From Butyrivibrio sp. (lineage in GTDB: Bacteria > Bacillota > Clostridia > Lachnospirales > Lachnospiraceae): a stretch of DNA of 64,000 nucleotides. A program made the translations under genes and the position numbers. The DNA is taken from assembly GCA_017446685.1 (NCBI GenBank), contig JAFSQI010000054.1:62001-126000 (forward strand), given 5' to 3'. The notes under the pieces were generated by a model. The model did not search any database. It saw only the letters and a program-made list of their open reading frames with translations, and was not told the origin of the DNA. How positions within the stretch are numbered: the first letter of the stretch is position 1; every line of letters begins with the position of its first letter. This document shows positions 12,467 to 47,835 of the stretch, piece by piece.

Positions 12467-13219
12467 TTAGATGACATATGAATCCTGCGGGATTATCCGG
12501 GAAAGGAACTGCCTTGTTCGCTCTTCCTTTGGTTTATAGAATATTTCATCCGGCTTTCCTTCTTCTACTACCACTCCTCCATCCATAAAAATAACTCTGT
12601 CAGCAACATCTTCGGCAAAAGACATTTCATGTGTCACAACTATCATGGTAATTCCCATTTTTGCGACATTTTTTATTACTTCGAGTGTTTCTCCTACAAG
12701 TTCAGGGTCAAGGGCTGATGTCGGCTCATCAAAAAGTATCACTTCAGGCTTAAGTGCGACAGCTCTGGCAATTCCAACTCTTTGCTGCTGACCTCCGGAA
12801 AGCTGTGAAGGATAGAAATCCTTTTTATCAATAAGTCCAACCCATTTTAGCGCATCCTCCGCAATTTTAGTTGCCTCAGCCTTTGATTTCTTTTGAACCT
12901 GTGTAAGCCCCTCCATAACATTTTGAAGTGCTGTCTTATGGGCAAACAGACCGTAGTTTTGAAAAACAAAAGCTGTATGCCTTCTTACATCAAGAATTTC
13001 TCTTTTCCTTGCTCTTTTTAAATCTATCTCTTTTCCGTCAAACTTCAAAATGCCACTGTCAGCACGTTCCAGAAAGTTAATGCACCTTAGAAATGTTGTT
13101 TTTCCAGAACCGCTAGGACCTAATATAACAACTACTTCACCATTATTAACCTTAACCGAAACATCCCTTAAAACTTCCTGTTTTCCAAAACTTTTCTTAA
13201 CTCCAACAAGTTCAATCAT
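12467..13219 (-). CDS. polar amino-acid ABC importer, ATP-binding subunit
   Basis: A 251-residue ABC ATPase that energises import. It has Walker [10 protein letters not shown], a Q-loop in [12 protein letters not shown], signature [14 protein letters not shown], Walker [14 protein letters not shown] and the switch His in [15 protein letters not shown], the pattern of GlnQ/TcyN-type transporters. A longer frame begins at 13303, but ATG 13219 overlaps the stop of the upstream permease by one base (TAATG) and follows AGGGAC, so it is preferred. It closes the operon of binding protein and two permeases. Placement directly after the nitrogenase-like and cysteine genes suggests a sulfur compound such as cystine as substrate, which is an inference. 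Confidence 0.93.
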
Positions 13220-13929
13220 TATACTGTCCCTTTTTTCAAATATTTCCCTGAATTTTTTTCTGCAAAATATGCCAAAAGCTCTATAAATGCTCCAATCAGC
13301 CAATATACAAGTGCTGCTGCCACATATCCTTCAAGATAACTGTAATATAAAAGACTGGGTAAAAGAGCTCCCGTCATGATCTCCACAACTGCAATAGCAC
13401 TTACAAGATTTGATGCCTTCAAAAGTCCTATAAGAGAATTCTGCAATCCCGGAAGAAGAATCGGAACCATCTGCGGATAAATAATTCTTGTAAGAGTCTT
13501 CACTTTACTTAGACCAATACTGTATCCTGCCTCATACTGGATTTTTGAAATTCCTCTAAAGGCTCCCCTTACGCTCTCACTTATAGAACAGGTAGTTCCA
13601 AGTATCAGCGTAAAATAACCGATTATAATAGGATTTATATCTGTGATCGGGATATTGATATTAAGAGCTTTCGCGACATCATTATAGAAAGTCATAAAGA
13701 TCAGATTGTACAGAATAAGAGCAACCATTGTGGGAAGTCCCATATATACAGTGACAAATACTGAAAAAAACTGAGAAAGAACCGGTATCTTATAATATCT
13801 TACAGTTGCCACTATAGTCCCCAATATAAGACTTATAACAAAGGTGATAAATGTCAGCTTAAGAGTTACAGGTGCATACAAAAAAGCTGATTTTAATGAA
13901 TCTAAAAAATTGGATATTCCAAATGACAT
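13219..13929 (-). CDS. polar amino-acid ABC importer, permease subunit
   Basis: A 236-residue membrane protein with about five hydrophobic segments. The coupling-helix region around [32 protein letters not shown] is the EAA loop typical of HisM/TcyL-type permeases. Together with the neighbouring permease it would form a heterodimeric pore. It starts at ATG 13929 after GAGGAGG, 15 bases after its partner gene, and its stop overlaps the ATPase start. Confidence 0.9.
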
Positions 13930-13944
13930 ATCATACGCACCTCC

Positions 13945-14637
13945 TCAATCAGCCAGCTTTTTTTCTATGAGGATAAATGCCCCCTTTAATAAAAGGCTGA
14001 AAGTAATATATATCACTGTAGCCGCCACATATCCTTCAAGGGTATGCCCGGTTGCTGCTCCAAGCGTTTTGGCCTTTCCAAGGATATCTACGACGCCTAA
14101 AGTAAACACCAGTGAAGTATTCTGAAAAACTCCGACAAGATCAACTCCATAATGCGGAATTGCCACCTTAAATGCCTGCGGGAGCACAATTCTTGTAAAA
14201 GTTTGTGCTCCCGTCATTCCTATGGAATAACCTGCTTCTGTCTGAATATACGGAACAGAAGTAATCGCACCTCTGAATATTTCACCAAGAAATGCTCCTT
14301 CATTCAGAATGATAGCTATCTCAACAAATATTACAGGCTCTATCCTATTTAAATTTATCCCAAAAGCATTCATAAATAGTGAACCAAATACAATCGGTAT
14401 TCCATAAAAAGCTATCATCATCTGTACCAGAAGAGGAGTTCCACGCATAAAGGATATATATACTCCAAGAATCTGCCCTATTACCGGAATCCTCTTTAGT
14501 CTGAGTACAGCGACAAACACCGCAAGTATTGTTCCTAGAAGCATCGACCAAAACACTATATGGAAATTCACGGATACATTTGAAATTATTTTAGGAAAAA
14601 CATATATGAATCTTTCAAAGCTAAAATAATTTCCCAT
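13945..14637 (-). CDS. polar amino-acid ABC importer, permease subunit
   Basis: A 230-residue membrane protein of the same family as the next gene, with about five transmembrane segments and the EAA-type loop EIFRGAITSVPYIQTEAGYSIGM followed by RIVLPQAF. The RGTPLLVQMMIAFYGIP stretch is the usual HisMQ motif. It starts 5 bases after the stop of the binding-protein gene, with GAGGAA upstream, so translation is probably coupled. It is likely paired with the permease at 13219-13929. Confidence 0.9.
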   Translation of the reverse strand: MGNYFSFERFIYVFPKIISNVSVNFHIVFWSMLLGTILAVFVAVLRLKRIPVIGQILGVYISFMRGTPLLVQMMIAFYGIPIVFGSLFMNAFGINLNRIEPVIFVEIAIILNEGAFLGEIFRGAITSVPYIQTEAGYSIGMTGAQTFTRIVLPQAFKVAIPHYGVDLVGVFQNTSLVFTLGVVDILGKAKTLGAATGHTLEGYVAATVIYITFSLLLKGAFILIEKKLAD

Positions 14638-14642
14638 AACCG

Positions 14643-15512
14643 TTATTCCTCTTCTGTCACATCATAACCCACCCACTTGATTGCAAGTTCTGAAAGGGTT
14701 CCGTTTTCCTTAAGTGTCTTTAAAGCACCGTCAACAGCCTTTTGAAGCTCAGTTTCATCTTTTCTGTAAAGATAATATGTCTTTGAATTATTTATTGGCT
14801 CTCCAACCGATTTTACCCAGTCTTTTCCATCATCACTGAAGTTTTTATTGTATTTAATCACATCACTCTTTTTAAGCACTGTAGCTGCTGCCGCTCCGGA
14901 CTTAAGAGCTGCTGCCCCTTCTTCATCGGTACTTGAGTCAGTGTTTACTATTACAACTTCCTGCCCGGGATGTTCCTCATTCCACTTGGTAAGAATCTGT
15001 GTAGTTGCACTTGTTGCTCCGCCTGACCTGATATTCTTACCTGCAAGATCTTCAAGTGAAGTAACATCACTATCTATCAAAACCGCAAGATATGTTATAT
15101 ATGAAGTATAGGTTTCCTCTGAGAAAAGATACTTCTCTGCCCTCTCATCTGTATATTCATACTGGTGTGCGGCAAGATCAATCTTTCCTGCTTCAAGTGA
15201 AAGAACAAGCTGATCAAAAGCCATTGACTGATATTCAAATTCATACTGGGGAAGCAGCTCATCTATAGCCGCAAGAACATCATATTCATATCCTACCGCG
15301 TTACCTTCCTCATCCAGATAGCAATAAGGATTGTAGTTAATGCCTGAGCCGATCACAACCTTGGTTACTTCTGAATTTCCATTTTCAGTTTTGCTGACAT
15401 CTGCTGCAGAAGAATTAACACTAGAAGATGAACCGCATCCCACCATCTGAGCCATCATCGCTGCAGTAACTCCAATTACCGTTATTTTCCTGATTATTTC
15501 TGATTTTCTCAT
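14643..15512 (-). CDS. extracellular amino-acid-binding lipoprotein of the ABC importer
   Basis: A 289-residue solute-binding protein. The N-terminus has a lipoprotein signal: basic start, hydrophobic run, lipobox MVGC near residue 26 and a Ser-rich linker. The mature part is an SBP_bac_3 fold of two lobes (from VVIGSGINYNPYCYLDEEG, with YEYDVLAAIDELLPQYEF and the KIDLAAHQYEYTDERAEKYLFSE segment). This cluster is seen in cystine and polar amino-acid binding proteins. It would sit on the outer face of the membrane and hand the ligand to the permeases encoded next. The gene follows the nifX-like gene by 27 bases, linking the importer to the nfl operon. Confidence 0.9.
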   Translation of the reverse strand: MRKSEIIRKITVIGVTAAMMAQMVGCGSSSSVNSSAADVSKTENGNSEVTKVVIGSGINYNPYCYLDEEGNAVGYEYDVLAAIDELLPQYEFEYQSMAFDQLVLSLEAGKIDLAAHQYEYTDERAEKYLFSEETYTSYITYLAVLIDSDVTSLEDLAGKNIRSGGATSATTQILTKWNEEHPGQEVVIVNTDSSTDEEGAAALKSGAAAATVLKKSDVIKYNKNFSDDGKDWVKSVGEPINNSKTYYLYRKDETELQKAVDGALKTLKENGTLSELAIKWVGYDVTEEE

Positions 15513-15539
15513 ACCCTTCTCCTCCTTTTTTTTATAAAT

Positions 15540-16010
15540 TTATACACCATCTTTTCTAAGTGAAATGTGTCTGTCTATCTTGTCAAAATATGCAGAGATT
15601 TTTGTAAGAGCATCGTTTACACTACAGTCAACATCAAAAGATGTAATTTTCTTTTGTTCCAGCTGCTTTTGTGCCTGAAAGCCGATTTTTTTGCATACAA
15701 GGCTTCTGCAATCCGATATAAGTTCAACCTTGGGAAGTAAACCACCAGCTCCATGGCAGCCACTTCCACATCCTTTACCGCTTCCACATTGCGGCCTCTC
15801 ACTGCATTCAACGTTTTCAGGAAGACTATCACTTATTTTCTTCTGCACTGAGTTATTCAAATTTGGTTCCTTGTTTTCCTCAAGCTTTCTGTAGCCAATT
15901 TTTTTTATTTCCAAGCCATCTATGCTATATACATGGAAACCTTCTGCAGCCCCAAAAGACAGGTCAACATTCTTTTCATCTAAAGAAGCGACAGCTATTA
16001 AATAAGACAT
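15540..16010 (-). CDS. NifX/NafY-type metallocluster-binding protein
   Basis: A 156-residue protein of the dinitrogenase iron-molybdenum-cofactor biosynthesis family (NifX, NafY, NifB C-terminal domain). The N-terminus MSYLIAVASLDEKNVDLSFGAAEGFHVY gives the typical beta-strand and ligand-pocket start. The C-terminal half (VELISDCRSLVCKKIGFQAQKQLEQKKITSF) is the second part of the fold. Between them lies an unusual Cys/Gly-rich insertion with CSERPQCGSGKGCGSGCHG. Such proteins carry NifB-cofactor-like Fe-S clusters between scaffold and enzyme. It lies 28 bases after nflK, so it would be made with the reductase and could deliver or protect its cofactor. This is one of two nifX-like genes in the locus. 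Confidence 0.82.
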   Translation of the reverse strand: MSYLIAVASLDEKNVDLSFGAAEGFHVYSIDGLEIKKIGYRKLEENKEPNLNNSVQKKISDSLPENVECSERPQCGSGKGCGSGCHGAGGLLPKVELISDCRSLVCKKIGFQAQKQLEQKKITSFDVDCSVNDALTKISAYFDKIDRHISLRKDGV

Positions 16011-16038
16011 TTTCCTAACGCCTTTCTAAAAATTTTTA

Positions 16039-17337
16039 TCAGTTAAATCTCTGTGAAGCCACAGTATAAATATCTTCAATAAGCCTTATTCCACCTGTGT
16101 ATCCAACAATAAAGTCATCAAATACCACCTTGTCTCTTACCGGCCAGGAGATGTTCAGGAAATTGCCCTTTAAATCCTCTGTGATTTCTTTGTCATAATA
16201 GCCTCCAAGAACAAGCGGATAACCGTGATAATCATGTTCCTTTATTGCTTCGTGAATCTTATAGCTGTCTGTTTCAAATACAGCTTCTGCTTCAAGTCCA
16301 TAATTAAGATTCTTAAATTCTGCTGCTATATCTTCCCTGTACTCCTTTGGCGTGTCATCTACAATAAACTGTTTAGCGGGAACCAGTCCAAGGTCATTTG
16401 TAAGGAATTTTGTAATTCCAAGGGCGTACTGCGCATCCGCAACCACGGAAAACTGCTTGTTGATAACTCTGTTTTCAAGGAAAAGATCTGCATATCTTTC
16501 TATGAGATAGTAATAATATTTCTCGTGCTGTGTGATTACTTCTTCAACTTTACTTTCATCAAGCTTTGCAAACTTTCCTACTTCCCTCAAAAATTTACTG
16601 GTTTCAAACGCACCTACAGGAAGCGTCTTGTAATGAAGATACGGAATTCCGAGTTTCTTTTCCATCTTTTTTACATTTTTTAAAGATACCCAGGGTGAAA
16701 CCAAAAGGTTAAACTCGGCGTATGGGATGTTTTTTATATTCTCAATTCCTCTTCCATAGCCAAAAATTGTATTCGGTGTAAGTCCGATCTCTTTAAGCAG
16801 ATTTTCAAGCTCCCTTATATTTCCAAGCCAGTAAAGATCCTGGTATGGGACATCAGCCCATATATTTACAAAACCTTTGCGACGTGCCTCTGCTTTTTCC
16901 AGAAACTGATCTGTTATCGCATCTATAACCTGCTCATGGCCTTTGTAGTTATTTCCCTTAAATCCAGCTGTAGGAGCATAAATAACAGGCTTTTCTGCAT
17001 CAGCGAATTCTGAAACAACCTCTCCTGAATCATCACCTACTATTTCGGGAATACAACCAGTCAAAACCACATATAGATCAGCATCTATGACCTTAAGTGC
17101 ATTATCTATAGTTGAATGAAGCTTTTTAACACCTCCAAACACTACATCTTTCTCATTTATGCTGGTACATGGAAAAATATTAGGAGAAAAATATCCGCTG
17201 CTTCCTGTCCCGTCTGAGAGTTTCTGTGCACACCCGGGTCCGGAATGAAGAACCGGAATTGCTCTGTCAATCGCCTGAACTGTCTGCATTGCAGCAAGCG
17301 CACACTTATATCTTTGTTTATCAAGTAATTTTGCCAT
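16039..17337 (-). CDS. nflK: nitrogenase-like component 1, beta-type subunit (NflK)
   Basis: A 432-residue member of the NifD/NifK/BchN family, shorter than NifK because the N-terminal arm is missing. The three P-cluster cysteines expected in NifK are seen at Cys12 (YKCALA), Cys36 (HSGPGCAQ) and Cys95 (LTGCIPEIVGDD). With three in NflD this gives a full set for an [8Fe-7S] cluster. No cofactor-binding Cys/His pair is expected in this subunit. The gene starts 18 bases after nflD with GGGAGG upstream. Absence of nifE/nifN homologues and the short N-terminus separate it from nitrogen-fixing nitrogenase; group IV (methylthio-alkane-reductase-like) is the best fit. The symbol is used in the generic nitrogenase-like sense. 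Confidence 0.85.
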   Translation of the reverse strand: MAKLLDKQRYKCALAAMQTVQAIDRAIPVLHSGPGCAQKLSDGTGSSGYFSPNIFPCTSINEKDVVFGGVKKLHSTIDNALKVIDADLYVVLTGCIPEIVGDDSGEVVSEFADAEKPVIYAPTAGFKGNNYKGHEQVIDAITDQFLEKAEARRKGFVNIWADVPYQDLYWLGNIRELENLLKEIGLTPNTIFGYGRGIENIKNIPYAEFNLLVSPWVSLKNVKKMEKKLGIPYLHYKTLPVGAFETSKFLREVGKFAKLDESKVEEVITQHEKYYYYLIERYADLFLENRVINKQFSVVADAQYALGITKFLTNDLGLVPAKQFIVDDTPKEYREDIAAEFKNLNYGLEAEAVFETDSYKIHEAIKEHDYHGYPLVLGGYYDKEITEDLKGNFLNISWPVRDKVVFDDFIVGYTGGIRLIEDIYTVASQRFN

Positions 17338-17355
17338 TTTTGCTCTTCCTCCCGA

Positions 17356-18825
17356 TCATACCTTTTCCTGTACCAGGAATTCGCCAACACTCTGCTTGTA
17401 CCACCAGTCTGTATAAGGAAGTTTTGTTCTCTTTGCCAGATTTTTTTCAAAACTTCGGTTTCTGATACTATCAAGAATAGAATTAGCAAAATCCAAAGTG
17501 TGTTTATAACCGAATATCATATATTCGTCTGCCACATATACTGCGGGCGTACCATTTTTAATCGCCCATACAGTTGAACCGGGATGTCTTGAAAGATACA
17601 GATCCGGCTGGTACTTGTTCAGCACATTCATAACTTCATAGTTCTGCTGATCTGAAATGCTTGTTCCAAAATCTATATCATTTTCAAGCAGATATTTCAT
17701 TGAAGGAGGAACATCACCGTTTTCATATTTCTTGTCATAATGCCATGCAAGAGCCCATACTACCTCAATGCCAAGCTCATTTAGAACTCTTGAAACCTCG
17801 AAGGTGTACCCGGGGCCCATTCCGATAACTGCTTTAAGTCCTTTAAGTTCTTTTTTGACCTCTTCAATCTTTGGAAGATATATTTCTCTTTGTTCTTTAA
17901 TATATTTTTCAATCTTTTCACTTCTTCCTGTTACCTTACCAATCTCGCGAAGCCAGGTCTCAAAGCCTACAATTCCGCACTGGTTTATTGACCGTACATA
18001 CGGAACGCCATACTTTTCTTCAAGAGCATTTCCAAGATAGTTTCCTAAGGTTCCGCAAATACAGGTAGTTGCCAATGCCTCAGATATATGTGAAAGCTCC
18101 TCAACAGTAGAATTACAGTAAAGAAATGTGGGCTCAAGATCAAAGTTTTTAAACATTTCTATAATCTCAGGCCTTGCGCTTTCATAGAAATTCTTGAAAT
18201 TTATCTTATTTGACTTAATGCCTTCTCTCGGAGGCTTTACAATAGACTGAAGAACAGCATGATCTGAAACATCAAATCCTGTAGCCCATATTCTTGATTT
18301 AAATCCCTCACAATGAACCGCAACTATTGGCACATTTACCTGATCTTTGATTTCATCAACAACGCTGTCTATATCTTCACCGATAATTCCTGTTGCACAG
18401 GAACTTGTCACAAAAATTGCCTTGGGGCTGTAGCGTTTGTTAACTTCCAATACGATTTTCTTTAGCTGCTCAGTAGAGCCAAATATCGTATCATTTTCAT
18501 TCATATCAGTTCCGACATAAACCGTATCGTTAGTAACACCTCTCTTTTTTGCCATTACTTTATCAAGGTAATAGGAACCTGCTGCCGCTACAGAACATCC
18601 TGCAGGGCCGTGATGGATAATTGCCACATCTCTTATAGCTGATAACTGCCCCAGAGCACAGCTTGAAAGACACGTACTTGACTGAGAAAAGCATCTTGAG
18701 CATCCCTTTAATGTCCCGCATTCACTCTGGCTTGCCAGATCATGCAATGAACCAAGATATCCTGTAATGGAGCCTATTCGGTTTTCTCTTGTCGCAACAT
18801 TCGAATTGTTTAAATTTATAGCCAT
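17356..18825 (-). CDS. nflD: nitrogenase-like component 1, alpha-type catalytic subunit (NflD)
   Basis: A 489-residue homologue of NifD. P-cluster ligands align as Cys56, Cys77 (HHGPAGC) and Cys143 (SSCATGIIGED). The two FeMo-cofactor ligands of NifD also have counterparts: Cys257 (CICGTLGNY, same spacing to NY as in NifD) and His442 (FGYKHTLDF). A NifB-derived cofactor is therefore expected. In the CEGF segment, however, the residues aligned with Azotobacter Gln191 and His195 are Trp180 and Phe184, and Arg96 aligns with Tyr85, so the N2-reducing surroundings are gone. Four extra N-terminal cysteines (36, 42, 45, 52) are unusual. With nflH, nflK and sulfur genes around it, a C-S bond-reducing enzyme like methylthio-alkane reductase is the leading idea. 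Confidence 0.87.
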   Translation of the reverse strand: MAINLNNSNVATRENRIGSITGYLGSLHDLASQSECGTLKGCSRCFSQSSTCLSSCALGQLSAIRDVAIIHHGPAGCSVAAAGSYYLDKVMAKKRGVTNDTVYVGTDMNENDTIFGSTEQLKKIVLEVNKRYSPKAIFVTSSCATGIIGEDIDSVVDEIKDQVNVPIVAVHCEGFKSRIWATGFDVSDHAVLQSIVKPPREGIKSNKINFKNFYESARPEIIEMFKNFDLEPTFLYCNSTVEELSHISEALATTCICGTLGNYLGNALEEKYGVPYVRSINQCGIVGFETWLREIGKVTGRSEKIEKYIKEQREIYLPKIEEVKKELKGLKAVIGMGPGYTFEVSRVLNELGIEVVWALAWHYDKKYENGDVPPSMKYLLENDIDFGTSISDQQNYEVMNVLNKYQPDLYLSRHPGSTVWAIKNGTPAVYVADEYMIFGYKHTLDFANSILDSIRNRSFEKNLAKRTKLPYTDWWYKQSVGEFLVQEKV

Positions 18826-18848
18826 TTTTTCCTCCTACAATTTACAAC

Positions 18849-19712
<864 letters not shown>

Positions 19713-19735
19713 TTATATATGTAAAAATTTTCCAA

Positions 19736-19772
19736 TAAAAAAGGAGGCTCACCAGTACTTAAGTGAACCTCC
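19736..19772 (-). terminator. intrinsic terminator between cysK and nflH (possible attenuator)
   Basis: Arms GGAGGTTCAC and GTGAGCCTCC (19772-19763 and 19752-19743 on the minus strand, one G:U) are followed directly by TTTTTTAT. The distance to the nflH start is only 39 bases, too short for a full separate promoter downstream. A CCGGacaaCCGG sequence just upstream overlaps the 5' arm and could form an alternative structure. Either partial read-through or regulated antitermination would then set nfl expression. Confidence 0.8.
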
Positions 19773-19803
19773 GGTTGTCCGGTCAGTTAATATTTTATTT
19801 TTA

Positions 19804-20739
19804 TCAGTTAGAAAAAAGTGGTGTAGTAAGATATCTGTCTCCGGAATCAGGTAAAAGAACTACGATGTTCTTGCCCTTATACTCCGGTCTTGCTGCTACG
19901 ATTGTAGCCGCCTTAAGCGCTGCGCCTGATGAGATACCTACAAGAATTCCCTCTGAAAGTGCAAAATTTCTTCCCTCTGTAAATGCATCATCATTTTCAA
20001 TTGCAATTACTTCATCATAAACCTTTGTGTTAAGAACATCCGGAACAAATCCTGCACCGATGCCCTGAATCTTGTGAGCACCTGCCGTTCCCTTTGAAAG
20101 TACAGGGCTTGTTGCAGGTTCTACTGCAATAACCTTGATATCAGGATTTTTCTCCTTTAAATATTCGCCTACACCTGTGATTGTTCCGCCTGTACCAACT
20201 CCTGCGATAAATACATCAACTTTTCCGTCTGTCTGTTCCCAGATCTCAGGACCTGTTGTAGCCTTATGAACCGCCGGGTTAGCGGGATTTACAAACTGTC
20301 CAAGAATTACAGAGCCTTCAATCTCGTTAAGAAGCTCATCTGCCTTTGCAATTGCTCCCTTCATTCCCTTTGCTCCCTCTGTAAGAACAAGTTCAGCACC
20401 ATAAGCCTTTAAAAGATTTCTTCTCTCTACGCTCATAGTATCGGGAAGTGTAAGGATTGCCTTGTATCCCTTAGCTGCTGCAACTGCTGCAAGACCAATA
20501 CCTGTATTTCCTGATGTTGGTTCGATAATTGTTGCTCCCGGCTTTAACTTACCACTCTTTTCAGCTTCTTCAATCATTGCAAGAGCAACTCTGTCTTTTA
20601 CAGATCCGGCAGGATTTAAGTACTCAAGCTTGGCAAGGATAGTAGCTCCTGTTACTCCAACCTTCTTGCTGTATCCGTTTAATTTAAGAAGTGGTGTGTT
20701 TCCGATAAGTTCAAGTGCGCTTTCTTTAATCTGTGACAT
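19804..20739 (-). CDS. cysK: cysteine synthase A (O-acetylserine sulfhydrylase)
   Basis: A 311-residue PLP enzyme that makes cysteine from O-acetylserine and sulfide. The PLP lysine is in [11 protein letters not shown] near residue 45. The substrate loop [12 protein letters not shown], the [18 protein letters not shown] phosphate-binding loop and the C-terminal [12 protein letters not shown] all match CysK rather than CysM or cystathionine beta-synthase. The start ATG 20739 follows AAGGGAG. The gene is downstream of the metB/mgl-like gene on the same strand and upstream of nflHDK. In this setting it can capture sulfide released by the neighbouring lyase or reductase. Confidence 0.95.
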
Positions 20740-20850
20740 ATTTAATATTCTCCCTTCGAATTTGTTTTTGTTTTACTAAAATGAATTCTAGCACAATAAT
20801 TCACGTCCTAAAATCAGCTTTTACTTATTGCCAGGTATAAGTTTATATTA

Positions 20851-22041
20851 TTAGCCGCATATTTTTTCAGCTACAGAAAAGACTCTGTTAAACTCGCAGA
20901 TAAGGTCATTTATTCCCTCAATTCCTACAGAAAGCCTTAAGACTCTGTCATTTATCCCGTTTTTTTCAAGAACATCCTTGGGAACATCTGCATGCGTCTG
21001 GGTAATAGGATAAGTTATAAGTGTTTCTGTTCCCCCAAGACTCTCCGCAAAGTATATCAGTTCAACATTATTTAATATGGCTTTTGCAAAAGAAACCGAA
21101 TCAACCTCAAAGGTAAGCATTGCACCAAAGCCCCTTGCCTGTTTTTTCATTATATTGTAGCCCGGATGATCCTCAAGTCCCGGATAAATCACCTTGGTAA
21201 CATGCTTATTTAACTTTAAAAATCTTGCGAGCTTAAGCGCATTTTCCTGCGCCCTCTCAAGACGTACCGCCAAGGTCCTTATTCCTCTTAAGATAAGCCA
21301 GCTGTCAAAAGGACTAAGCCCCGCTCCTGTCGTCTTATATAAAAATCTCAGCCTTTCATCTATCGCTTTATCTTTTACCACCACAAAGCCGCCTATTGTA
21401 TCATGATGCCCTCCAAGGAATTTCGTACCTGAATGAATGACTATATCAGCGCCAAGGTCAAGAGGATTCTGAAAATACGGAGATAAAAAAGTATTATCAA
21501 CTATCAGAATAAGACCGTTCTCATGTGCTGCCCTTGATAGTTCTTCTATATCAGTTACATTCATCATAGGATTGGTGGGCGTCTCAAGATAAACAGCCTT
21601 TGTGTTATCCTGTATCAAAGGTCTGATATCATCAGTGCTTAAGTTTGCTGCTGTAAAGGTAAGTCCGTTTTTTTTGCTGATTTCATTAAAAAGCCTTATA
21701 CTACCACCATAGAGATCCGAGTCAATAATAAAATGGTCGCCCGGCTGCAATAGTTCCATGACTGTTGCAACTGCCGCCATACCGCTTGAAAAAGCTATGG
21801 CATCTGTCCCGTTTTCAAGGTAACTTACAATTGACTCAAGCTGCTGCCTTGTCGGATTCTGCATTCTGGTATAATCATAGCCTGTGCTTTGACCAAGTCC
21901 CGGATGCGCAAAGGTTGCAGTCTGGTATATAGGAAAACTGATAGCTCCGTATTTATCCATTAAGCTTCTATCAAGCTGCTGACATTTAGTATCTATGCTG
22001 CAATTAATTTCTGTACATCTGTTACAACCACTACAATCCAT
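20851..22041 (-). CDS. Cys/Met-metabolism PLP enzyme (cystathionine gamma-synthase / gamma-lyase / OAH sulfhydrylase family) with Cys-rich N-terminus
   Basis: A 396-residue fold-type-I PLP enzyme. YQTATFAHPG, YDYTRMQNPTRQQLE, SSGMAAVATVMELL, ETPTNPMMNVTDI, DNTFLSPYFQNPLDLGAD and the PLP lysine in HSGTKFLGGHHD are all present. The C-terminal ESLGGTETLITYP and RLSVGIEG are those of MetB, methionine gamma-lyase and cystathionine gamma-lyase, and residues visible by eye do not settle which reaction. The first 20 residues carry five cysteines (3, 6, 9, 14, 20), replacing the usual TKLIHGG start, and may bind metal. Its place between patB- and cysK-like genes suggests thiol incorporation or transsulfuration. 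The ribosome site AAGGAAGG precedes ATG 22041. Confidence 0.88.
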   Translation of the reverse strand: MDCSGCNRCTEINCSIDTKCQQLDRSLMDKYGAISFPIYQTATFAHPGLGQSTGYDYTRMQNPTRQQLESIVSYLENGTDAIAFSSGMAAVATVMELLQPGDHFIIDSDLYGGSIRLFNEISKKNGLTFTAANLSTDDIRPLIQDNTKAVYLETPTNPMMNVTDIEELSRAAHENGLILIVDNTFLSPYFQNPLDLGADIVIHSGTKFLGGHHDTIGGFVVVKDKAIDERLRFLYKTTGAGLSPFDSWLILRGIRTLAVRLERAQENALKLARFLKLNKHVTKVIYPGLEDHPGYNIMKKQARGFGAMLTFEVDSVSFAKAILNNVELIYFAESLGGTETLITYPITQTHADVPKDVLEKNGINDRVLRLSVGIEGINDLICEFNRVFSVAEKICG

Positions 22042-22087
22042 CCTGCTTTACCTTCCTTTTTTGTTAAATACTGTAAACTTTTCTTAA

Positions 22088-23302
22088 TTATGGTATTTTT
22101 ATATCTAACTTCTTTTTGCTTAAGCGATAACTTTTAACCGCCTTATCAAGCTGTAAAAGCGCTCTTTTTAGCACACTTCTTTGACATGCAATATTTATCC
22201 TTGCAAAAAGAGATGAATCCTTCCCGAATATTTTTCCAAAATCAAGCCAAAGGTGCGCTTCATCCACTACCAGATGTCTTAAATCTTTGTAATTATCCGT
22301 AAGAAAAGAAAAATCAAGCCAGACAAGATAGGTCCCTTCAGGTTCTGTAAGCCTTATCTCAGGGATATTCTCTTTCAAAAAAGCCTTTAAATATTCAAGA
22401 TTACCGTTTAAATAATCTAAAAGTTCATCTACCCAATCAGCCCCCTTTTCGTAACAGGAAGCCGTTGCTGTTAATCCAAGCGCATTTGGCTGACTATATC
22501 CTCCGGCATCATTTTCCCTTCTAAACGCCCTTCTGATTTTCTCATCAGGGATAATAATATTTGCTATCTGAAGACCTGCAATATTAAAGGTCTTACTAGG
22601 AGAAGTAGCAAGTATTAGCTTTTTATGGTATTTTTCATCCAGATTCATAAAAGATAAATGCTTATATCCCGGATAAATAAAATCAGAATGTATTTCATCT
22701 GCCAAAATAATAACATCGTGCTTTAAACAAATATCTCCGAGCCTTTCAAGTTCACTTTTTCCCCATACTCGCCCAACCGGATTATGAGGACTGCAAAGTA
22801 AAAACAGTTTAACGTTATTATCAGCAATCTTTTTTTCAAAATCTTCAAAGTCTATTTCATAATGCCCATCTTTGTTAATAAGCTTATTATTTATGACCAC
22901 CCTATTGTTTAACTCAATTGTCTCTCTGAAAGGATAATAGACAGGCTCCTGTATAAGAACTCCATCCCCTTTTTCGGTAAAGGCTCTGACAGCAATAGCA
23001 ATAGAAAAAACCACTCCCGGAACAACCGTATTCCATTCACCTTGAATTTCAAAGCCATGTCTTTTCAAAAACCAGTTACTTACCGACTGGTTGTAATCAG
23101 CTTTAACTTCAGTGTAACCAAATACCCCATGTTCAATTCTTTTTTGCAAATCAGCAAGAATTTCATCGGGAAGTCTGAAGTCCATATCTGCAACCCACAT
23201 GGGAAGAAGATCATCTCTCCCTATACGCTCGATGCCAAAATCAAATTTAAGACTTGATGTACCTCGTCTGTCTATCACTTCATCAAAATTGTATTTTCCC
23301 AT
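22088..23302 (-). CDS. patB: MalY/PatB-family PLP C-S beta-lyase (cystathionine beta-lyase type)
   Basis: A 404-residue class I/II aminotransferase-fold enzyme of the MalY/PatB subgroup, which splits the C-S bond of cystathionine or cysteine conjugates giving pyruvate, ammonia and a thiol. Diagnostic segments are the N-terminal DRRGTSSLKFD and LPMWVADMDFRLP, the central LCSPHNPVGRVW, DEIHSDFIYPGYKH and the PLP lysine in ATSPSKTFNIAGLQIAN. The C-terminal ARINIACQRSVLKRALLQL holds the substrate-carboxylate arginine. The start ATG 23302 has GAGGAA upstream. The gene precedes the metB/mgl-like gene by 46 bases. It would release homocysteine or simple thiols for methionine synthesis. Confidence 0.88.
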   Translation of the reverse strand: MGKYNFDEVIDRRGTSSLKFDFGIERIGRDDLLPMWVADMDFRLPDEILADLQKRIEHGVFGYTEVKADYNQSVSNWFLKRHGFEIQGEWNTVVPGVVFSIAIAVRAFTEKGDGVLIQEPVYYPFRETIELNNRVVINNKLINKDGHYEIDFEDFEKKIADNNVKLFLLCSPHNPVGRVWGKSELERLGDICLKHDVIILADEIHSDFIYPGYKHLSFMNLDEKYHKKLILATSPSKTFNIAGLQIANIIIPDEKIRRAFRRENDAGGYSQPNALGLTATASCYEKGADWVDELLDYLNGNLEYLKAFLKENIPEIRLTEPEGTYLVWLDFSFLTDNYKDLRHLVVDEAHLWLDFGKIFGKDSSLFARINIACQRSVLKRALLQLDKAVKSYRLSKKKLDIKIP

Positions 23303-23378
23303 GTATTTTTCCTCGTAATCCTGAAACTAATGATAAATAATCCGGACTATTTCTATCAATTCGAAAATATGCGACTTT

Positions 23379-23525
23379 GGTTACTGTTCAAACAGAAATG
23401 CGCACTAAGCTGCGCATTTCGTGAGAACCTGATGCAGGAGTGAGCGCATTCCATCGACGAAGTCGATTTGGAATGAATGCGCGAAGTGGTTACTGGAGCG
23501 AGCAGTATGCGAGTGAACAGTAACC
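23379..23525. repeat. nested palindromic intergenic element inside the nfl locus
   Basis: GGTTACTGTTC (23379-23389) recurs in inverted form at 23515-23525. Between them is a hairpin with ATGCGCA/TGCGCAT arms (23398-23417 region) and a second with GCGCATTCC paired to GGAATgaATGCGC (23444-23482). No open frame is conserved. It fills the gap between the nifX-like gene and patB and shares its GGTTACT end with the element at 54117, so it is likely a REP-like dispersed repeat. Confidence 0.62.
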
Positions 23526-23548
23526 GACTTTGTCGTCAATAGCTGTAG

Positions 23549-23911
23549 TCAGATTGTTCCGTTTAGCTCCTGCAATAGTTTTATATATCCATCAAGTCTT
23601 TTTATAGAATCAGCTACATTTCCCGGAAGCTCAAAACAGGCAATTCCTCTCTCTTTAAGCTCATAAGAAGCACCCGGTCCGATTTTTGCAGCAAGCACAA
23701 AGTTACAGTCAAGCAGCACCTCAGTAGCTTTTTTTAATTTTTCACTGTCGTGATACCCGCCCATACAGACAGGTGTTACAAATCTTTGTTCAATTTCCTC
23801 ATAGCTCCCATCTTCATTTACATCAACTATCAAAAAGCTTTCTGCCCTTCCATAGTGCTGATCAACATGCCTGTTATCAGTTGATGCTATAGCAACCCTA
23901 TATGATACCAT
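23549..23911 (-). CDS. NifX-like cofactor carrier (detached NifB C-terminal domain)
   Basis: A 120-residue single-domain protein of the NifX/NafY/NifB-C family. It begins VSYRVAIASTDNRHVDQHYGRAESFLIVDV, the usual start with a His-containing ligand loop, and continues through VCMGGYHDSEKLKKATEVLLDCNFVLAAKIGPGA. The gene begins 28 bases after nifB, whose product lacks this domain, so the two together reproduce a full-length NifB split into separate chains. It is expected to hold NifB-co and hand it to the NflDK apoenzyme. A second, longer nifX-like gene lies downstream of nflK. Confidence 0.85.
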   Translation of the reverse strand: MVSYRVAIASTDNRHVDQHYGRAESFLIVDVNEDGSYEEIEQRFVTPVCMGGYHDSEKLKKATEVLLDCNFVLAAKIGPGASYELKERGIACFELPGNVADSIKRLDGYIKLLQELNGTI

Positions 23912-23939
23912 TTATATTCCTCTATTTTTTTAGAATAAC

Positions 23940-24812
23940 TTAACCATGCGAAAAAGTCTCTCGGACATTTAATCTGTTTTGATAAACGAGTTTAGAATAC
24001 TCAGATATTCCGGGAACACCTACGGCATCAGCTCTGCAATGAGCGCAGTGTCTAAATACCTTAATGTACTTTTCTGCATCCTCTCTCGCTTTTTCAAGCT
24101 GCTCACAGGTTGGTCTTGGAATCCCGCTAAGCTTATGCTGCGGAATAAGAGGAATAATGTTGTACATCAAAGCCCCCAGTTCTTTTACCGTTCTTGCTAT
24201 TTCAGAAATATGCTCATCATTTATCCCCGGTACCAGAACTGTGTTTATTTTTATTGTCACGCCTGCATCCGCAACCTTCTTAATGCCTTTTAGCTGATTT
24301 TCAATAAGAATCCTCGCGCCCTCAACTCCTTCATATTTTTTCCCGTGAAAGATTATGAAATCATTTAGTTTTGCCTCTATTTCCGGATCAACTGCATTTA
24401 CTGTAACTGTAAGTGTATCAATTCCTACCTCTAAAAGTTCATCAGCTCTTTCATACAAAAGAAGTCCGTTTGTACTCATACAGCTAAGAAGTTCAGGATG
24501 CCTGCCTGATATTTTTCTAAAGGTTTCAAAAGCAAAATCAGTTGCCAGTGTATCGCCGGGGCCTGCAATTCCGGCTACCTTGATTGTCGGAACAAGTTCA
24601 AGCGCCCTATCTATAAATGTATTTGCTTCATCCGGTGATATTACCTTAGATGTCACACCTGGCCTTTGCTCAACATCATTTATTGACCTGTCACAGAATT
24701 TGCATGCGATATTACATCCGGGGCTGACCGGCAAATGAATTCTTCCTGCATTAAATTTGCATCCACCAAAGCAAGGATGATTTTTTTCAAGTTCTTCTAT
24801 TGTTCTAGCCAT
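23940..24812 (-). CDS. nifB: radical SAM cofactor maturase NifB
   Basis: A 290-residue NifB core. It builds the carbide-containing [8Fe-9S-C] NifB cofactor from two [4Fe-4S] clusters and SAM. Residues from ATG 24812: HPCFGGC at 13-18 with Cys14 and Cys18, the radical SAM motif Cys33-x3-Cys37-x2-Cys40 (CNIACKFC), QRPGVTS shortly after, AGPGDTLA, and the C-terminal HCAHCRADAVG with Cys256 and Cys259. These are the residues NifB uses for its RS, K1 and K2 clusters. The C-terminal NifX domain is missing and encoded by the next gene. GTG 24821 is also in frame, but GGGGTG is correctly spaced for ATG 24812. NifB beside nfl genes argues for a real NifB-type cofactor in the enzyme. Confidence 0.93.
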   Translation of the reverse strand: MARTIEELEKNHPCFGGCKFNAGRIHLPVSPGCNIACKFCDRSINDVEQRPGVTSKVISPDEANTFIDRALELVPTIKVAGIAGPGDTLATDFAFETFRKISGRHPELLSCMSTNGLLLYERADELLEVGIDTLTVTVNAVDPEIEAKLNDFIIFHGKKYEGVEGARILIENQLKGIKKVADAGVTIKINTVLVPGINDEHISEIARTVKELGALMYNIIPLIPQHKLSGIPRPTCEQLEKAREDAEKYIKVFRHCAHCRADAVGVPGISEYSKLVYQNRLNVRETFSHG

Positions 24813-24828
24813 ATTTATCACCCCGTAC

Positions 24829-24987
24829 TTAGAATCTTTGCTTTTTTACAGTTTCAAGCTGAACGATTTTTCCCTCATGGATAGTAATACTTACATTTCC
24901 GAATTTTATGCCCTCAACCTGATTTTTTATCTGTTCCCAGATTTTTTCATTGCTTTCCCAAAAATCTTCTCTGTTCTCTTTTGCCAT
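24829..24987 (-). CDS. YezD-like small protein (DUF2292)
   Basis: A 52-residue protein whose second half, EGIKFGNVSITIHEGKIVQLETVKK, matches the YezD/DUF2292 family pattern of a short helix followed by a beta-hairpin. Members are commonly linked with sulfur-assimilation genes, but no biochemical role is known to me. The start chosen is ATG 24987 because GGGAGGA lies at good spacing. ATG 25038 is in frame and has a weaker GGAG, which would add 17 residues unlike the family. It is the first gene of the yezD-nifB-nifX group, 16 bases before nifB, and may mark sulfur-responsive control of the locus. Confidence 0.75.
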   Translation of the reverse strand: MAKENREDFWESNEKIWEQIKNQVEGIKFGNVSITIHEGKIVQLETVKKQRF

Positions 24988-25001
24988 ATATAGTCCTCCC
25001 G

Positions 25002-25034
25002 TGGCAACCGTCTGCCAGGCATGTATATAGCCTG
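25002..25034 (-). promoter_or_regulatory. tandem hairpins in the leader of the yezD-nifB operon
   Basis: Two adjoining stem-loops lie just upstream of the ribosome site: CAGGC/GCCTG arms (25034-25030 with 25020-25016) and TGGCA/TGCCA arms (25017-25013 with 25006-25002). They overlap by two bases, so they may compete. An in-frame upstream ATG (25038) precedes them. A translational control element is possible, but no known riboswitch family is recognised. Confidence 0.4.
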
Positions 25035-25073
25035 CCATCAGTGCATCTCCATACCTTGTTTTATGTTGTTTGT

Positions 25074-25102
25074 ATTATGCTTTAGAACATCACAGTTGTA
25101 AA
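25074..25102 (-). promoter_or_regulatory. probable promoter of the yezD-nifB operon
   Basis: On the minus strand there is TTTACA (25102-25097), a 17-base spacer and CATAAT (25079-25074). The transcript would start near 25067, leaving an 80-base leader with the hairpins described separately. It lies downstream of the queA terminator, which makes the operon independent of queA. Confidence 0.6.
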
Positions 25103-26414: not shown

Positions 26415-27380
26415 TTAATTATTTTTTAAAATTGGTTCAATCTGTGATACCAGATTGTCGATGTGTTCAAATACACTACTCTTGGTTGTACCAAGATTAT
26501 TAACTTTATCAAGCTGACTTACCAGCTCATCATATCTTCTGTTGATGTCATCAAAGCCGCCGCGGATTCTCTCAAGCTCATCTGTTGCATCCTCAGCAGT
26601 ATCCGAAATTTCTTTCTGAACTGCATTGGCGCCATTAGCACTTTGAATGATTTCATCAAAGGTTTTATTGGTTTCCTCAACCTCATTAAGACTTCTATCC
26701 ATCGCAGCAATGGAATTTTCCATGCTGATCGTGAGTTTCTCGCTCTCGGCTCCTGCATTATCGATTGATGCATTAACCTGATCGATCATTACTTTTATCT
26801 CATCTGCAAGCTCTCTAACCTCTGTTGCAACAACGGCAAATCCCTTACCTGCCGCACCTGCTCTGGCTGCCTCAATAGAAGCATTAAGTGCCAAAAGATT
26901 AGTCTGAGAGGCAATGTTGATGATTTTTTTCATATAATCTGAAATCTGTTCAACTGACTGTTTAAAGTTTTCAAATCCCAAAGCCATCTCATCGAAGCTT
27001 GCTCTTACCTCATTGGAACTGCTCTTAAGCTCTCCAACTTTATCCTGTGCATTTTGAACACTATTCAGGATATTAACCTTTACATCTTCAAATTTAGATG
27101 CACTCTGATTAACTTCAGCAAATTTCTCATTAAAGAGTTCCATCTGATCACGTAACTTGGCATTGGAATCAATGACATTCCCAATTGCAGTACCCATGTC
27201 GTGGATTTCAGTCAGAGAATTCACCTCATTGTTTACCAAATCCTTTTGGTAGGTCTTTATAGAATTGGCAATATAGACCAGTGAATCTTTCTTTTCCTTG
27301 AACTGTTCTATTTCAAGCTTTTCACGACTTACCGGAGCGCTTTCGACTTCTTCATTTTTCTTTGCAAAAAAATCAAACAT
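26415..27380 (-). CDS. soluble methyl-accepting chemotaxis-type signalling protein
   Basis: A 321-residue protein without transmembrane segments. The C-terminal two thirds are a coiled-coil MCP signalling domain, with the hairpin tip sequence [40 protein letters not shown] at about 155-195. The N-terminal 40 residues are short and charged, with no recognisable sensor. ATG 27401 is in frame but overlaps the FIST stop, whereas ATG 27380 directly follows AGGAGAG and is preferred. It is paired with the FIST-domain sensor encoded just upstream, which could supply the missing input module. It would signal through CheA/CheW, which lie elsewhere. Confidence 0.9.
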
Positions 27381-27393
27381 TTTTCTCTCTCCT

Positions 27394-28449
27394 TTATTCA
27401 AATACCACGCATGTCATGGTCTGGTTAACAAACTGTGTGTTATAATGCTCACCAAATCCTACAAGTCCGCAGGAAGTGCCAAGCGTACCAATCTTACCAA
27501 GGTACTGGTTTATTCCACCATTTTCCTGGAATACAAGGTATCTGAATATGCAGTTGACAGAGAAAATTGCTGACACGCTCGAAAAATCTCTTTTAATGCT
27601 ATCGATTGTGTTCTGAGCTACTTCAGCCATGTCTCTCATCTCCAGGATTGTGAGAATGTCTGAGTCATTGATCTGCCTGTATAATATTAGTCCGCTTCCG
27701 GAAACATCTTTAAGAGAAACAATGCAAACATCTTCTCCAACCATTTTTCCGAAAGGATTTTTGAAAGTCTGATCTACTATTTTTCCTTCCTGTGCACCTG
27801 TAAGCTGCATATAAACCTGTTTAGCAGGCTTTCCGTTTAGCTCTCCAAGATAATATTTGCTCTTATCGGTCTTGGATGCGATAAGCTGCAAATTGTCTTT
27901 TGGTGCATACAGATTTTCTTTATATGTTTTAACCTTACCCGTCTCATTCCTTATAACAGCAAAGGCCATTGCATCAGAGTAAATTTTTCCATTAACAGAT
28001 ACTTTACCGGCATCTGCTGTGGCTCCCATAATCTGAATGCCATATTTTTCTGTTATTCCGGATAATGTAGTAAGTACAGCTGCATCATTTCCGGAGCAAA
28101 AATCAATAATTGCAGTATTATTTTTTCCCGGCTTAACAGCCTCGACAGCGGCTTTTACCCTGTCAATATATCTTGCCGGTGCCTGGGATACATTCTCAAG
28201 AACATCCGTCTTAACAGTCACGCCATCAGTGAAGGCAGTAACGGAAACTCCCTTTTCAACAATTGTAGTACTATATCCCATAGCAATACAGCCAATGCTT
28301 GGGACACCCGGATATAATTTTTCTAATGTCGCAACGTTTTCCTCGAATTTTTCAGCGCTACTTGTCATTATAAGCAGTTTCGGATTTCTAAGTCCGCTAA
28401 CTGCCTCAGATACACTTCCGGAATTGCTCTTGCCATAATAGGTTTTCAT
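27394..28449 (-). CDS. FIST-domain sensory protein
   Basis: A 351-residue cytosolic protein with FIST_N (about 25-210) and FIST_C (about 215-345). [29 protein letters not shown] and [12 protein letters not shown] represent the N-terminal part. FIST_C ends with [27 protein letters not shown] and [23 protein letters not shown], the usual end with conserved Cys and Gly residues. FIST domains are thought to bind small ligands such as amino acids. The ribosome site AGGAGA before ATG 28449 sets the start. The chemoreceptor gene follows at once, so the two are probably a sensor and transducer pair. Confidence 0.88.
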
Positions 28450-28558
28450 AATCAATCTCCTTAAAAAATGATGATTGTAACCTATTTCATTTTACCATTT
28501 TTCGAAGAAAACGTTGCTACTATTACGTAAAAAATATATTAACTTTTAATAAATATAA

Positions 28559-47552: not shown

Positions 47553-47629
47553 ATTTCCCCCGCAAATGGAAAAAGCAGCCATATAAATGACTGCTTCTAT
47601 TTCCTTAATAATCCCAAAATGCCGTTTCC

Positions 47630-47835
47630 TGTTATTTGACTCCTAGCTAACGCCAGGTGGGTTACCGCAACCAAACACATCTGTCTTCCTCTCCCATAGC
47701 TTATCTGCGCATGCGCAGCACCGAAGGCGTGACATCAAATGTGGTAATGTAGGAGTCCCGTTTAAAGTAACTGTAGGTTCAAATTACACAGGAGTTGTCG
47801 GACATCCCAGGAGAACTACCAAGTAGTTCTTTTAA
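47630..47835 (+). ncRNA. structured ncRNA, possible raiA-motif RNA
   Basis: On the plus strand an 8-base-pair closing stem GACTCCTA (47638-47645) / TAGGAGTC (47750-47757) encloses GGTTaccgcAACC (47660-47672), a CTGCGCATGCGCAG palindrome and a CACCGAAGGCGTG hairpin. After the closing stem come a T-loop-like TTCAAAT inside CTGT..ACAG and an intrinsic terminator: AGAACTAC/GTAGTTCT (47812-47819 with 47823-47830) followed by TTTTAAT. The terminator orientation fixes the strand. Both flanking protein genes are on the other strand. The size and motif arrangement resemble the raiA RNA of clostridia, but this is from memory and unverified. No good promoter is seen upstream. Confidence 0.6.

What the first reader, a model, noticed from the sequence alone, without database searches (positions are those of the whole stretch)
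12467..25102. Nitrogenase-like reductase locus wired into cysteine/methionine metabolism
Seen: thirteen genes on one strand, namely yezD, nifB, nifX-like, patB-like, metB/mgl-like, cysK, nflH, nflD, nflK, nifX-like, and a polar amino-acid importer of four subunits. No nifE, nifN, anfG or nitrogen regulators are present. Known: group IV nitrogenase-like enzymes include methylthio-alkane reductase, which cuts C-S bonds to supply thiols for methionine. Inference: this is a sulfur-scavenging reductase of that type or a related, undescribed substrate class, in a gut/rumen-type clostridium, with dedicated uptake and thiol-capturing enzymes.
Basis: partly seen in the sequence, partly recalled or inferred. 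Interest (0 to 1): 0.92.

Follow-up and report, generated by a model that had tools for sequence, protein, structure and literature searches.

The report
Nitrogenase-like sulfur-scavenging operon of gut bacteria
A Butyrivibrio carries an operon that pairs a nitrogenase look-alike enzyme with a cysteine-making enzyme and a sulfur-amino-acid-type importer, so many gut genes now labelled "nitrogen fixation" are probably for pulling sulfur out of organic molecules instead.

The parts
24829..25038 (-). DUF2292 small protein (YezD/OscA-type), first gene of the operon
   Evidence: Pfam PF10055 44.8 bits vs 22 cut-off; NCBIfam OscA (sulfur starvation response) 31.1 vs 85, below cut-off
23940..24821 (-). 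NifB-like radical SAM protein, proposed maker of the [Fe8S9C] precursor cluster
   Evidence: TIGR01290 E 3e-81, 273 bits vs 344 cut-off; best solved match NifB 7bi7, E 1e-95
23549..23911 (-). NifX-like protein 1, proposed cluster carrier
   Evidence: PF02579 E 9e-18
22088..23302 (-). PatB-family C-S lyase
   Evidence: TIGR04350 458.6 bits vs 340 cut-off
20851..22041 (-). Cys/Met PLP enzyme, cystathionine gamma-synthase/gamma-lyase type
   Evidence: PF01053 E 8e-139; best solved matches cystathionine gamma-synthase 4l0o and gamma-lyase 7d7o
19804..20739 (-). CysK cysteine synthase, proposed sulfide acceptor
   Evidence: TIGR01139 449 bits vs 351 cut-off
18849..19697 (-). NflH, NifH-type Fe protein (reductase component)
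   Evidence: TIGR01287 464.6 vs 394 cut-off; best solved match 1cp2 nitrogenase Fe protein 479 bits vs MarH 291; groups with NifH-type rows, not MarH
17356..18825 (-). NflD (D1), catalytic alpha subunit with MAR-type active-site residues
   Evidence: best solved match MarD 9fmg E 1e-88; fold TM 0.90/0.94; C52, C77, C143, C257, R413, H414
16039..17337 (-). NflK (K1), catalytic beta subunit
   Evidence: best solved match MarK 9d9u_C E 2e-108, next 1mio_B 6e-22; C12, C36, C95 match MarK P-cluster ligands
15540..16010 (-). NifX-like protein 2, proposed cluster carrier
   Evidence: PF02579 E 3.5e-12
14643..15512 (-). ABC substrate-binding protein of YtmK/Lmo2349 type
   Evidence: best solved matches Lmo2349 5e-44 and B. 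subtilis YtmK 7e-42, next 8e-23
13945..14637 (-). ABC permease A
   Evidence: cystine ABC permease model best, E 1e-33, below cut-off
13219..13929 (-). ABC permease B
   Evidence: cystine ABC permease model best, E 3e-24, below cut-off
12467..13303 (-). ABC ATPase (true start probably near 13219)
   Evidence: L-cystine TcyN model best, 312.6 bits vs 406 cut-off, homology from residue 29

Best explanation
An anaerobic organic-sulfur scavenging operon built around a nitrogenase-like C-S-cleaving reductase. Proposed working: the YtmK-type ABC importer takes up a sulfur amino acid (for example S-methylcysteine, cystathionine or a relative); PatB and the cystathionine-type PLP enzyme can release its thiol part; NifB and the NifX-like proteins build and carry an [Fe8S9C] cluster, which goes into NflDK without NifEN; NflH, a NifH-type Fe protein, feeds electrons with ATP hydrolysis through a P-cluster to that cluster; NflDK reductively cuts a C-S bond; the released sulfur, most likely as sulfide, is captured by CysK as cysteine. 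Shown here: gene content, MAR-like predicted fold, conserved ligand residues, clade position, linkage to cysteine synthase, importer kinship, a SAM riboswitch in one relative. Inferred: cluster identity, the C-S reaction, the substrate, the sulfide-level product, expression on sulfur shortage. My estimates: C-S reductase for sulfur assimilation 0.85; product caught by cysteine synthase as sulfide 0.5; any named substrate at most 0.2.
Against: No substrate, product or expression data. The Fe protein is not MarH-type. Cysteine synthase is not special to D1: it is near 10 of 20 D2 loci and 6 of 9 loci of other Nfl classes. The amino-acid importer type does not separate D1 (21 of 62) from MAR (4 of 15; p 0.76), and 13 of 62 D1 loci have a sulfonate-type and 6 of 62 a MetQ-type binding protein, so importer identity does not fix the substrate. 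Fisher tests treat related loci as independent. Only 1 of 27 scanned D1 loci has a SAM riboswitch and the window has none. Within Butyrivibrio the sulfite reductase contrast vanishes: 1 of 10 D1 carriers vs 6 of 27 others tested for both. PatB is near only 25 of 62 D1 loci.
Confidence: 0.7

Rival explanations
1. It is functionally plain MAR: it splits 2-(methylthio)ethanol, dimethyl sulfide or ethyl methyl sulfide to methanethiol plus a hydrocarbon, and the methanethiol feeds methionine.
For: MarD ligands and the hallmark Arg-His are kept and fold agreement is very high; MAR-clade proteins occur in the same genus.
Against: D1 is outside the MAR clade; O-acetylhomoserine sulfhydrylase, the enzyme that would use methanethiol, is near 6 of 62 D1 loci and absent from this operon, whereas cysteine synthase is near 49 of 62. 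MarD His194 is Ile in 87 of 87 D1 rows, though it also varies in the MAR clade.
Confidence: 0.18
2. It releases or reduces sulfonate sulfur: an isethionate-reductase-like (Isr) or sulfite-reducing enzyme.
For: Sulfonate-type binding proteins lie near 13 of 62 D1 loci; the second pair D2K2 of this genome sits with a sulfonate-type importer, an Fe-alcohol dehydrogenase and a HisC-type transaminase. D1 carriers usually lack a sulfite reductase domain, so a sulfite-to-sulfide step would be useful.
Against: IsrD keeps one of three P-cluster cysteines and lacks the cofactor cysteine (PMC11423573, first part of its discussion read); NflD1 keeps all. IsrB is only distantly NifB-like by that paper; this NifB is close to solved NifB. 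No NIR_SIR enzyme was found here to reduce released sulfite. The window importer is amino-acid type.
Confidence: 0.1
3. It is a simplified nitrogenase of the group IV kind claimed for Endomicrobium proavitum, fixing N2 without NifEN.
For: The Fe protein is NifH-type. N2 fixation is reported for E. proavitum with a group IV enzyme (PMC11257099 and PMC9147875, passages read), NifEN-free nitrogenase assembly is published (PMC11573651, search listing only), and 15N2 incorporation was measured in human faeces that held Butyrivibrio-like nifH (PMC4995403; Klebsiella nifH was present too). The E. proavitum protein could not be placed.
Against: NflD scores 138 bits against nifD (cut-off 654), sits outside NifD/NifE, has the MarD Trp and Phe in place of nitrogenase Gln191/His195 (PMC12552129 section read), lies beside cysteine synthase and an importer nearest to YtmK, and purified MAR does not reduce N2 (PMC12552129).
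Confidence: 0.05

Closest known systems
Methylthio-alkane reductase MarBHDK of Rhodospirillum rubrum (PDB 9FMG, 9D9U; PMC12552129)
   Same: D and K subunits: nearest solved sequence and, for D, fold; P-cluster and [Fe8S9C] ligand residues, Arg428-His429, NifB-like maturase, no NifEN
   Different: separate sister clade; NifH-type Fe protein; cysteine synthase rather than O-acetylhomoserine sulfhydrylase as usual neighbour; MarD Cys73 and His194 replaced. The 14-residue N-terminal insert of R. rubrum MarD is absent, as it is from the other MAR-clade rows
Isethionate reductase IsrBHDK (PMC11423573)
   Same: Nfl enzyme with radical SAM partner, used for sulfur assimilation
   Different: IsrD lacks two P-cluster cysteines and the cofactor cysteine; proposed to release sulfite
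Cys275-bearing Nfl genes beside cysteine synthase or O-acetylhomoserine sulfhydrylase (Dos Santos 2012, PMC3464626, passages read)
   Same: this gene association and a possible sulfur role were noted there in 2012
   Different: the passages I saw give no subfamilies, MAR ligand set or link to gut nifH, and no function
Group IV nifDK in an operon with a cysteine synthase in a termite-gut spirochete (PMC13067680, passage read)
   Same: gut bacterium, DK pair with cysteine synthase, sulfur role suggested
   Different: nifB and nifH lie elsewhere; sequence not compared here
Group IV-A MarHDK-like genes near type I methyltransferase clusters (PMC10418091, passages read)
   Same: Nfl genes with sulfur and methionine genes
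   Different: tied to corrinoid methyltransferases, none of which is in this operon; whether D1 is IV-A was not tested
Mo-nitrogenase NifHDK
   Same: Fe protein family and overall architecture
   Different: D and K sequence class, cofactor-site residues, maturation set and neighbours

Membership tests
Methylthio-alkane reductase (MAR) | D subunit falls inside the clade with R. rubrum MarD | tested here: not met
   MAR clade of 14 rows 100/98 excludes D1; D1 18 rows 100/99; joint clade of 34 rows 99/97
Methylthio-alkane reductase (MAR) | six P-cluster cysteines (MarD 66/91/158, MarK 32/56/121) | tested here: met
   window C52, C77, C143 and C12, C36, C95; 86-87 of 87 D1 and 88 of 88 K1 rows
Methylthio-alkane reductase (MAR) | [Fe8S9C] ligands Cys270 and His429 with Arg428 | tested here: met
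   C257, H414, R413; 87 of 87 rows
Methylthio-alkane reductase (MAR) | MarD fold | tested here: met
Methylthio-alkane reductase (MAR) | NifB-like maturase, no NifEN | tested here: met
   genome 88.75% complete
Methylthio-alkane reductase (MAR) | MarH-type Fe protein | tested here: not met
   NflH in the 35-row NifH-type group; MarH in a 7-row group, 100/100
Methylthio-alkane reductase (MAR) | reduces methylthio-alkanes to methanethiol and hydrocarbon | not testable with these tools
   needs enzyme assay
Isethionate reductase (Isr) | IsrD with a single P-cluster cysteine and no cofactor cysteine | tested here: not met
   all four cysteines present; definition from PMC11423573; no IsrD sequence was aligned
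Mo-nitrogenase | NifD and NifE/NifN | tested here: not met
   NflD 138 bits vs nifD cut-off 654; four Oxidored_nitro genes in an 88.75% complete genome, best nifD score 142 bits
Mo-nitrogenase | NifH-type Fe protein | tested here: met
   464.6 bits vs 394 cut-off
DPOR (BchLNB) and CfbCD | score above curated family cut-offs | tested here: not met
   bchN 52.9 vs 420, bchB 57.9 vs 490, CfbD 62 vs 268 for NflD
Nfa group IV-A nitrogenase of Endomicrobium | clade with E. proavitum NfaDK | not tested
   no Endomicrobium sequence was obtained
TcyJKLMN-type sulfur amino acid importer | binding protein orthologous to YtmK/TcyK | tested here: inconclusive
   YtmK 7e-42 and Lmo2349 5e-44 stand far above the rest, but no tree was built; the equation YtmK = TcyK and the ligands of TcyJKLMN are recalled

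The most novel reading that the evidence does not exclude
D1 NflDK is a sulfide-releasing member of the [Fe8S9C] reductases (for example methanethiol or S-methyl compounds to H2S plus methane), carried by gut and rumen bacteria of three phyla. It mostly uses NifH-type Fe protein, so most 'nifH' of gut Lachnospiraceae marks sulfur scavenging, and these bacteria could make small amounts of methane or other hydrocarbons without methanogens. The second pair D2K2, in the genomes searched never found without D1, is an obligate accessory: a NifEN-like cluster scaffold or the enzyme of a linked step.
Probability: 0.22. Interest if true: 0.92.

Novelty: new variant of a known kind. Interest (0 to 1): 0.75.

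Why it matters
A survey scored 23% of 501 rumen genomes as nitrogenase-bearing by NifH and notes that in situ N2 fixation in the rumen is negligible (PMC6776011, passages read). Human-gut Cluster III nifH sequences, found in 10.7-31.7% of people in four populations, are 83-100% identical to Clostridiales (Lachnospira, Butyrivibrio) NifH, and their owners were called candidate N2 fixers (PMC4995403, passages and discussion read). Here 23 of 30 genomes of the family that pass NCBI's nifH cut-off have no NifD-level protein but have MAR-type or other Nfl D subunits. MAR also reduces acetylene (PMC12552129), so acetylene assays would not tell the two apart. Against a sweeping claim: PMC4995403 also measured 15N2 incorporation in faeces and states that some gut Clostridiales of that clade keep the nitrogenase histidine, and 7 of the 30 genomes here do have NifD. 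If right, gut nifH counts, acetylene data and H2 budgets need re-reading, and a new substrate class of [Fe8S9C] enzymes is open to test in cultured strains. One bovine study lists NifB, NifH and a sulfonate/nitrate/taurine transporter among genes positively associated with methane emission (PMC7181398, passages read); that is only a lead.

Tried and rejected
Rejected: the idea that NflK keeps an extra nitrogenase-type P-cluster cysteine (C57). Checked against NifK rows of genuine nif clusters it is not conserved there; the match of MarK C32/56/121 to NifK C70/95/153 rests on recalled NifK numbering.

Rejected: IsrD identity of D1 or D2, because both keep the P-cluster cysteines and the cofactor cysteine.

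Corrected on re-checking: my first neighbourhood counts (52 of 65 and 6 of 65 D1 loci) held four pairs of loci with the same D1 sequence, fetched twice from unnamed and named collections; one search keeps one of each. Butyrivibrio genomes G061-G084 were tested for sulfite reductase but not for D1, so they are left out of that comparison.

Led nowhere: no riboswitch in the window operon; no RNA family hits in seven of the closest loci. Searches for the YtmK/S-methylcysteine link found one weak paper, so TcyJKLMN substrates are recalled. In the papers listed (lists capped, open-licence library only) I saw none on this operon or on MAR-type enzymes in Butyrivibrio or the rumen. E. proavitum NfaD and R. 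capsulatus IsrD sequences were not obtained. The D2K2 scaffold idea was not decided: the D2 model also matches MarD best (TM 0.77/0.80), ahead of NifD and NifE.
Full report
What is there. The window carries a minus-strand run of 14 intact genes at 12467-25038: DUF2292 (YezD/OscA type), NifB-like, NifX-like, PatB, a cystathionine gamma-synthase/lyase-type PLP enzyme, CysK, NflH, NflD, NflK, a second NifX-like protein and a four-part amino-acid ABC importer. It is flanked by a PilZ gene and aroA on one side and queA on the other. The window lies on contig C4 of a 3.24 Mb draft genome, 88.75% complete. Two relatives of the same genus have contigs with the lengths of named Butyrivibrio records, sp. 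M55 and isolate RGIG6732, so I call the host Butyrivibrio and its family Lachnospiraceae.

Active site. The MAR structure paper (PMC12552129; introduction, structural, cofactor, coordination and evolution sections read) gives P-cluster ligands MarD C66/C91/C158 and MarK C32/C56/C121, [Fe8S9C] ligands C270 and H429, and R428-H429 as a possible MAR hallmark. Mapped by alignment, the window protein has C52, C77, C143, C257, R413, H414, W180 (MarD W195), F184 (F199) and H362 (H375). In 87 D1 rows (84 distinct sequences; at least 55% identical to the window protein) all are kept in 87, except C66 in 86 (one gap). MarD C73 is Gly, Ser, Ala or Asn (one gap), and H194 is Ile in all 87; but H194 is also Val, Ile, Thr or Met in other rows of the MAR clade, so it is not diagnostic. 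All 88 K1 rows (84 distinct) keep the three MarK cysteines.

Phylogeny. In a 57-row tree D1 (18 rows, one of them only 48% identical) forms a clade (100/99) sister to two unusual rows (L034, L036); these plus a MAR clade of 14 rows, which holds R. rubrum MarD, form a 34-row clade (99/97). A second class, D2, and a third group (L045, L049, L050) lie outside, and NifD, NifE and VnfD further out. The program flagged long branches among the outer rows, so only the inner structure is used. NflH behaves differently: in a 42-row tree the window NflH sits in a 35-row NifH-type group together with Fe proteins of genuine nif clusters (L047, L048), while R. rubrum MarH sits in a separate 7-row group, 100/100. 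Two D1 loci (L130, L133) have a MarH-type Fe protein instead, so Fe proteins have been exchanged.

Distribution. Many titles name rumen, omasum, cecum or other gut samples. They include Butyrivibrio and other Lachnospiraceae, Ruminococcus, Treponema and Bacteroidales, and cultured Lacrimispora, Ruminiclostridium hungatei, Propionispira, Clostridium acidisoli and C. aminobutyricum. A Treponema saccharophilum plasmid carries a similar core with two DK pairs, one D1 and one MAR-clade. The spread over Bacillota, Spirochaetota and Bacteroidota points to horizontal transfer.

Neighbourhood. Genes within 8 kb were assigned by best BLAST hit to a reference set made from these loci and recounted with duplicate D sequences removed. 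Among loci with at least 5 kb on both sides: CysK or a CysK paralogue (CysK2) in 49 of 62 D1 and 4 of 15 MAR-clade loci (Fisher 2.3e-4); O-acetylhomoserine sulfhydrylase in 6 of 62 and 7 of 15 (0.0024); amino-acid-type binding protein in 21 of 62 and 4 of 15 (0.76); sulfonate-type in 13 of 62 and 5 of 15 (0.32); MetQ in 6 of 62 and 5 of 15. With all distinct loci, cut ones included: CysK/CysK2 68 of 86 vs 6 of 22, sulfhydrylase 6 of 86 vs 8 of 22. Other Nfl classes also have cysteine synthase (D2 10 of 20, rest 6 of 9), so it is MAR that stands apart. Loci are related, so p values are descriptive. The contrast suggests that MAR-clade enzymes hand methanethiol to methionine synthesis while D1 hands sulfide to cysteine synthesis. 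CysK2 (60 of 86 distinct D1 loci) often sits between NflH and NflD but is absent from the window operon.

Importer and regulation. The window binding protein is nearest to Lmo2349 (5e-44) and B. subtilis YtmK (7e-42), next 8e-23. YtmK (TcyK) belongs to TcyJKLMN, which from memory imports cystine, cystathionine, djenkolate and S-methylcysteine. Of 27 D1 loci scanned for RNA families, one has a SAM riboswitch: in C. acidisoli, 134 bp before a same-strand run of importer genes (with one unassigned gene), D2K2, D1K1 and NifB. Of 7 MAR-clade loci scanned, one (L027) has two, 57 bp before a run of weakly Met-importer-like genes, NflH, NifX, NifB and the MAR-type D and K, and 94 bp before a sulfhydrylase gene. 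The window has none. SAM riboswitches are common in Clostridia (recalled), so only the positions, not the number, carry weight.

Sulfur background. The genome has no NIR_SIR sulfite reductase domain. In 200 genomes of the family, nearly all from different genera and at least 90% complete apart from G000, it is present in 1 of 13 D1 carriers (one known only from a contig-end fragment, G269) and 98 of 187 others (Fisher 0.0026). Inside the genus there is no contrast: 1 of 10 carriers vs 6 of 27 others among the 37 genomes tested for both.

A second pair. D2K2 of this genome (contig C96) keeps the P-cluster cysteines and the cofactor cysteine. In 28 of 28 D2 rows (27 distinct) Arg428-His429 are missing and His375 is Thr; in 27 of 28 Trp195 is Cys. 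It has no Fe protein or NifB beside it and the genome has one strong NifH, so NflH of the window probably serves both pairs. In other genomes D2K2 and D1K1 share one cluster. In the 200 genomes D2 occurs in 9, all of them D1 carriers (13); the class of all nine was checked by sequence (p 6e-13 with genomes taken as independent). One weaker D-like hit (G214) was not classed. Among 37 genomes of the genus, 8 of 10 D1 genomes have D2 and none has it without D1.

The nifH problem. In those 200 genomes, 30 have a protein above NCBI's nifH cut-off. Seven have a NifD of 631-684 bits (two above the cut-off of 654, five just below); the best nifD score in any other genome is 159 bits. The remaining 23 of 30 all have a nitrogenase-like D subunit matching NflD at 1e-20 or better, some of other Nfl classes than D1. 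Earlier work described pseudo-nifH lacking any nifDK (PMC8597730, passages read); here a partner is present but is not NifD.

Judgement. The finding is a real, widespread operon of a known superfamily but a distinct lineage, best read as a sulfur-scavenging C-S reductase. Association of such genes with cysteine synthase was noted in 2012 (PMC3464626) and for a termite-gut spirochete in 2026 (PMC13067680; passages read of both); MAR was described in 2020 (recalled; cited in PMC10418091) and Isr in 2024 (PMC11423573). Not seen in the papers found are the separate D1 lineage with MAR ligands and mostly NifH-type Fe protein, its contrast with MAR in sulfur-capturing partner, the D1-dependent second pair, and the share of gut nifH that goes with Nfl enzymes.

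Noticed in passing
genome G000 contig C96:4388-12416 (L005): Second nitrogenase-like pair D2K2 in an operon with a sulfonate-type ABC importer, a GldA-like Fe-alcohol dehydrogenase and a HisC-type transaminase; similar dehydrogenase, transaminase and importer genes lie near D1/D2 genes in L038, L116, L119, L132 and L133.
   Followed up: partly
G131:C32, G254:C23, G264:C47, G275:C48: Single open frames of 739-769 aa match both NifH and a nitrogenase-like D subunit, suggesting NifH-NflD fusion proteins in this family.
   Followed up: no
L130:14058-14948 and L133:9018: D1K1 clusters with a MarH-type Fe protein instead of the NifH-type, evidence that Fe proteins are exchanged between classes.
   Followed up: partly
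L075:10392-11774 and the same cluster (u10) in four other loci: A LanC-like (lanthionine synthetase C-like) protein recurs in 5 of 80 loci; possibly tied to a thioether substrate.
   Followed up: no
L165 (G121:C5:44000-52000): A second NifB-NifX-NflH-CysK2 core placed directly before D2K2, away from the D1K1 locus on contig C8.
   Followed up: no
window 26415-28455, minus strand: FIST-domain protein next to a methyl-accepting signalling protein; the FIST protein weakly matches the NosP nitric-oxide sensor model.
   Followed up: no
window 47607-47816, minus strand: 6S RNA gene.
   Followed up: no
L125:16173-16358: Cobalamin riboswitch just after the Megamonas D1 cluster.
   Followed up: no
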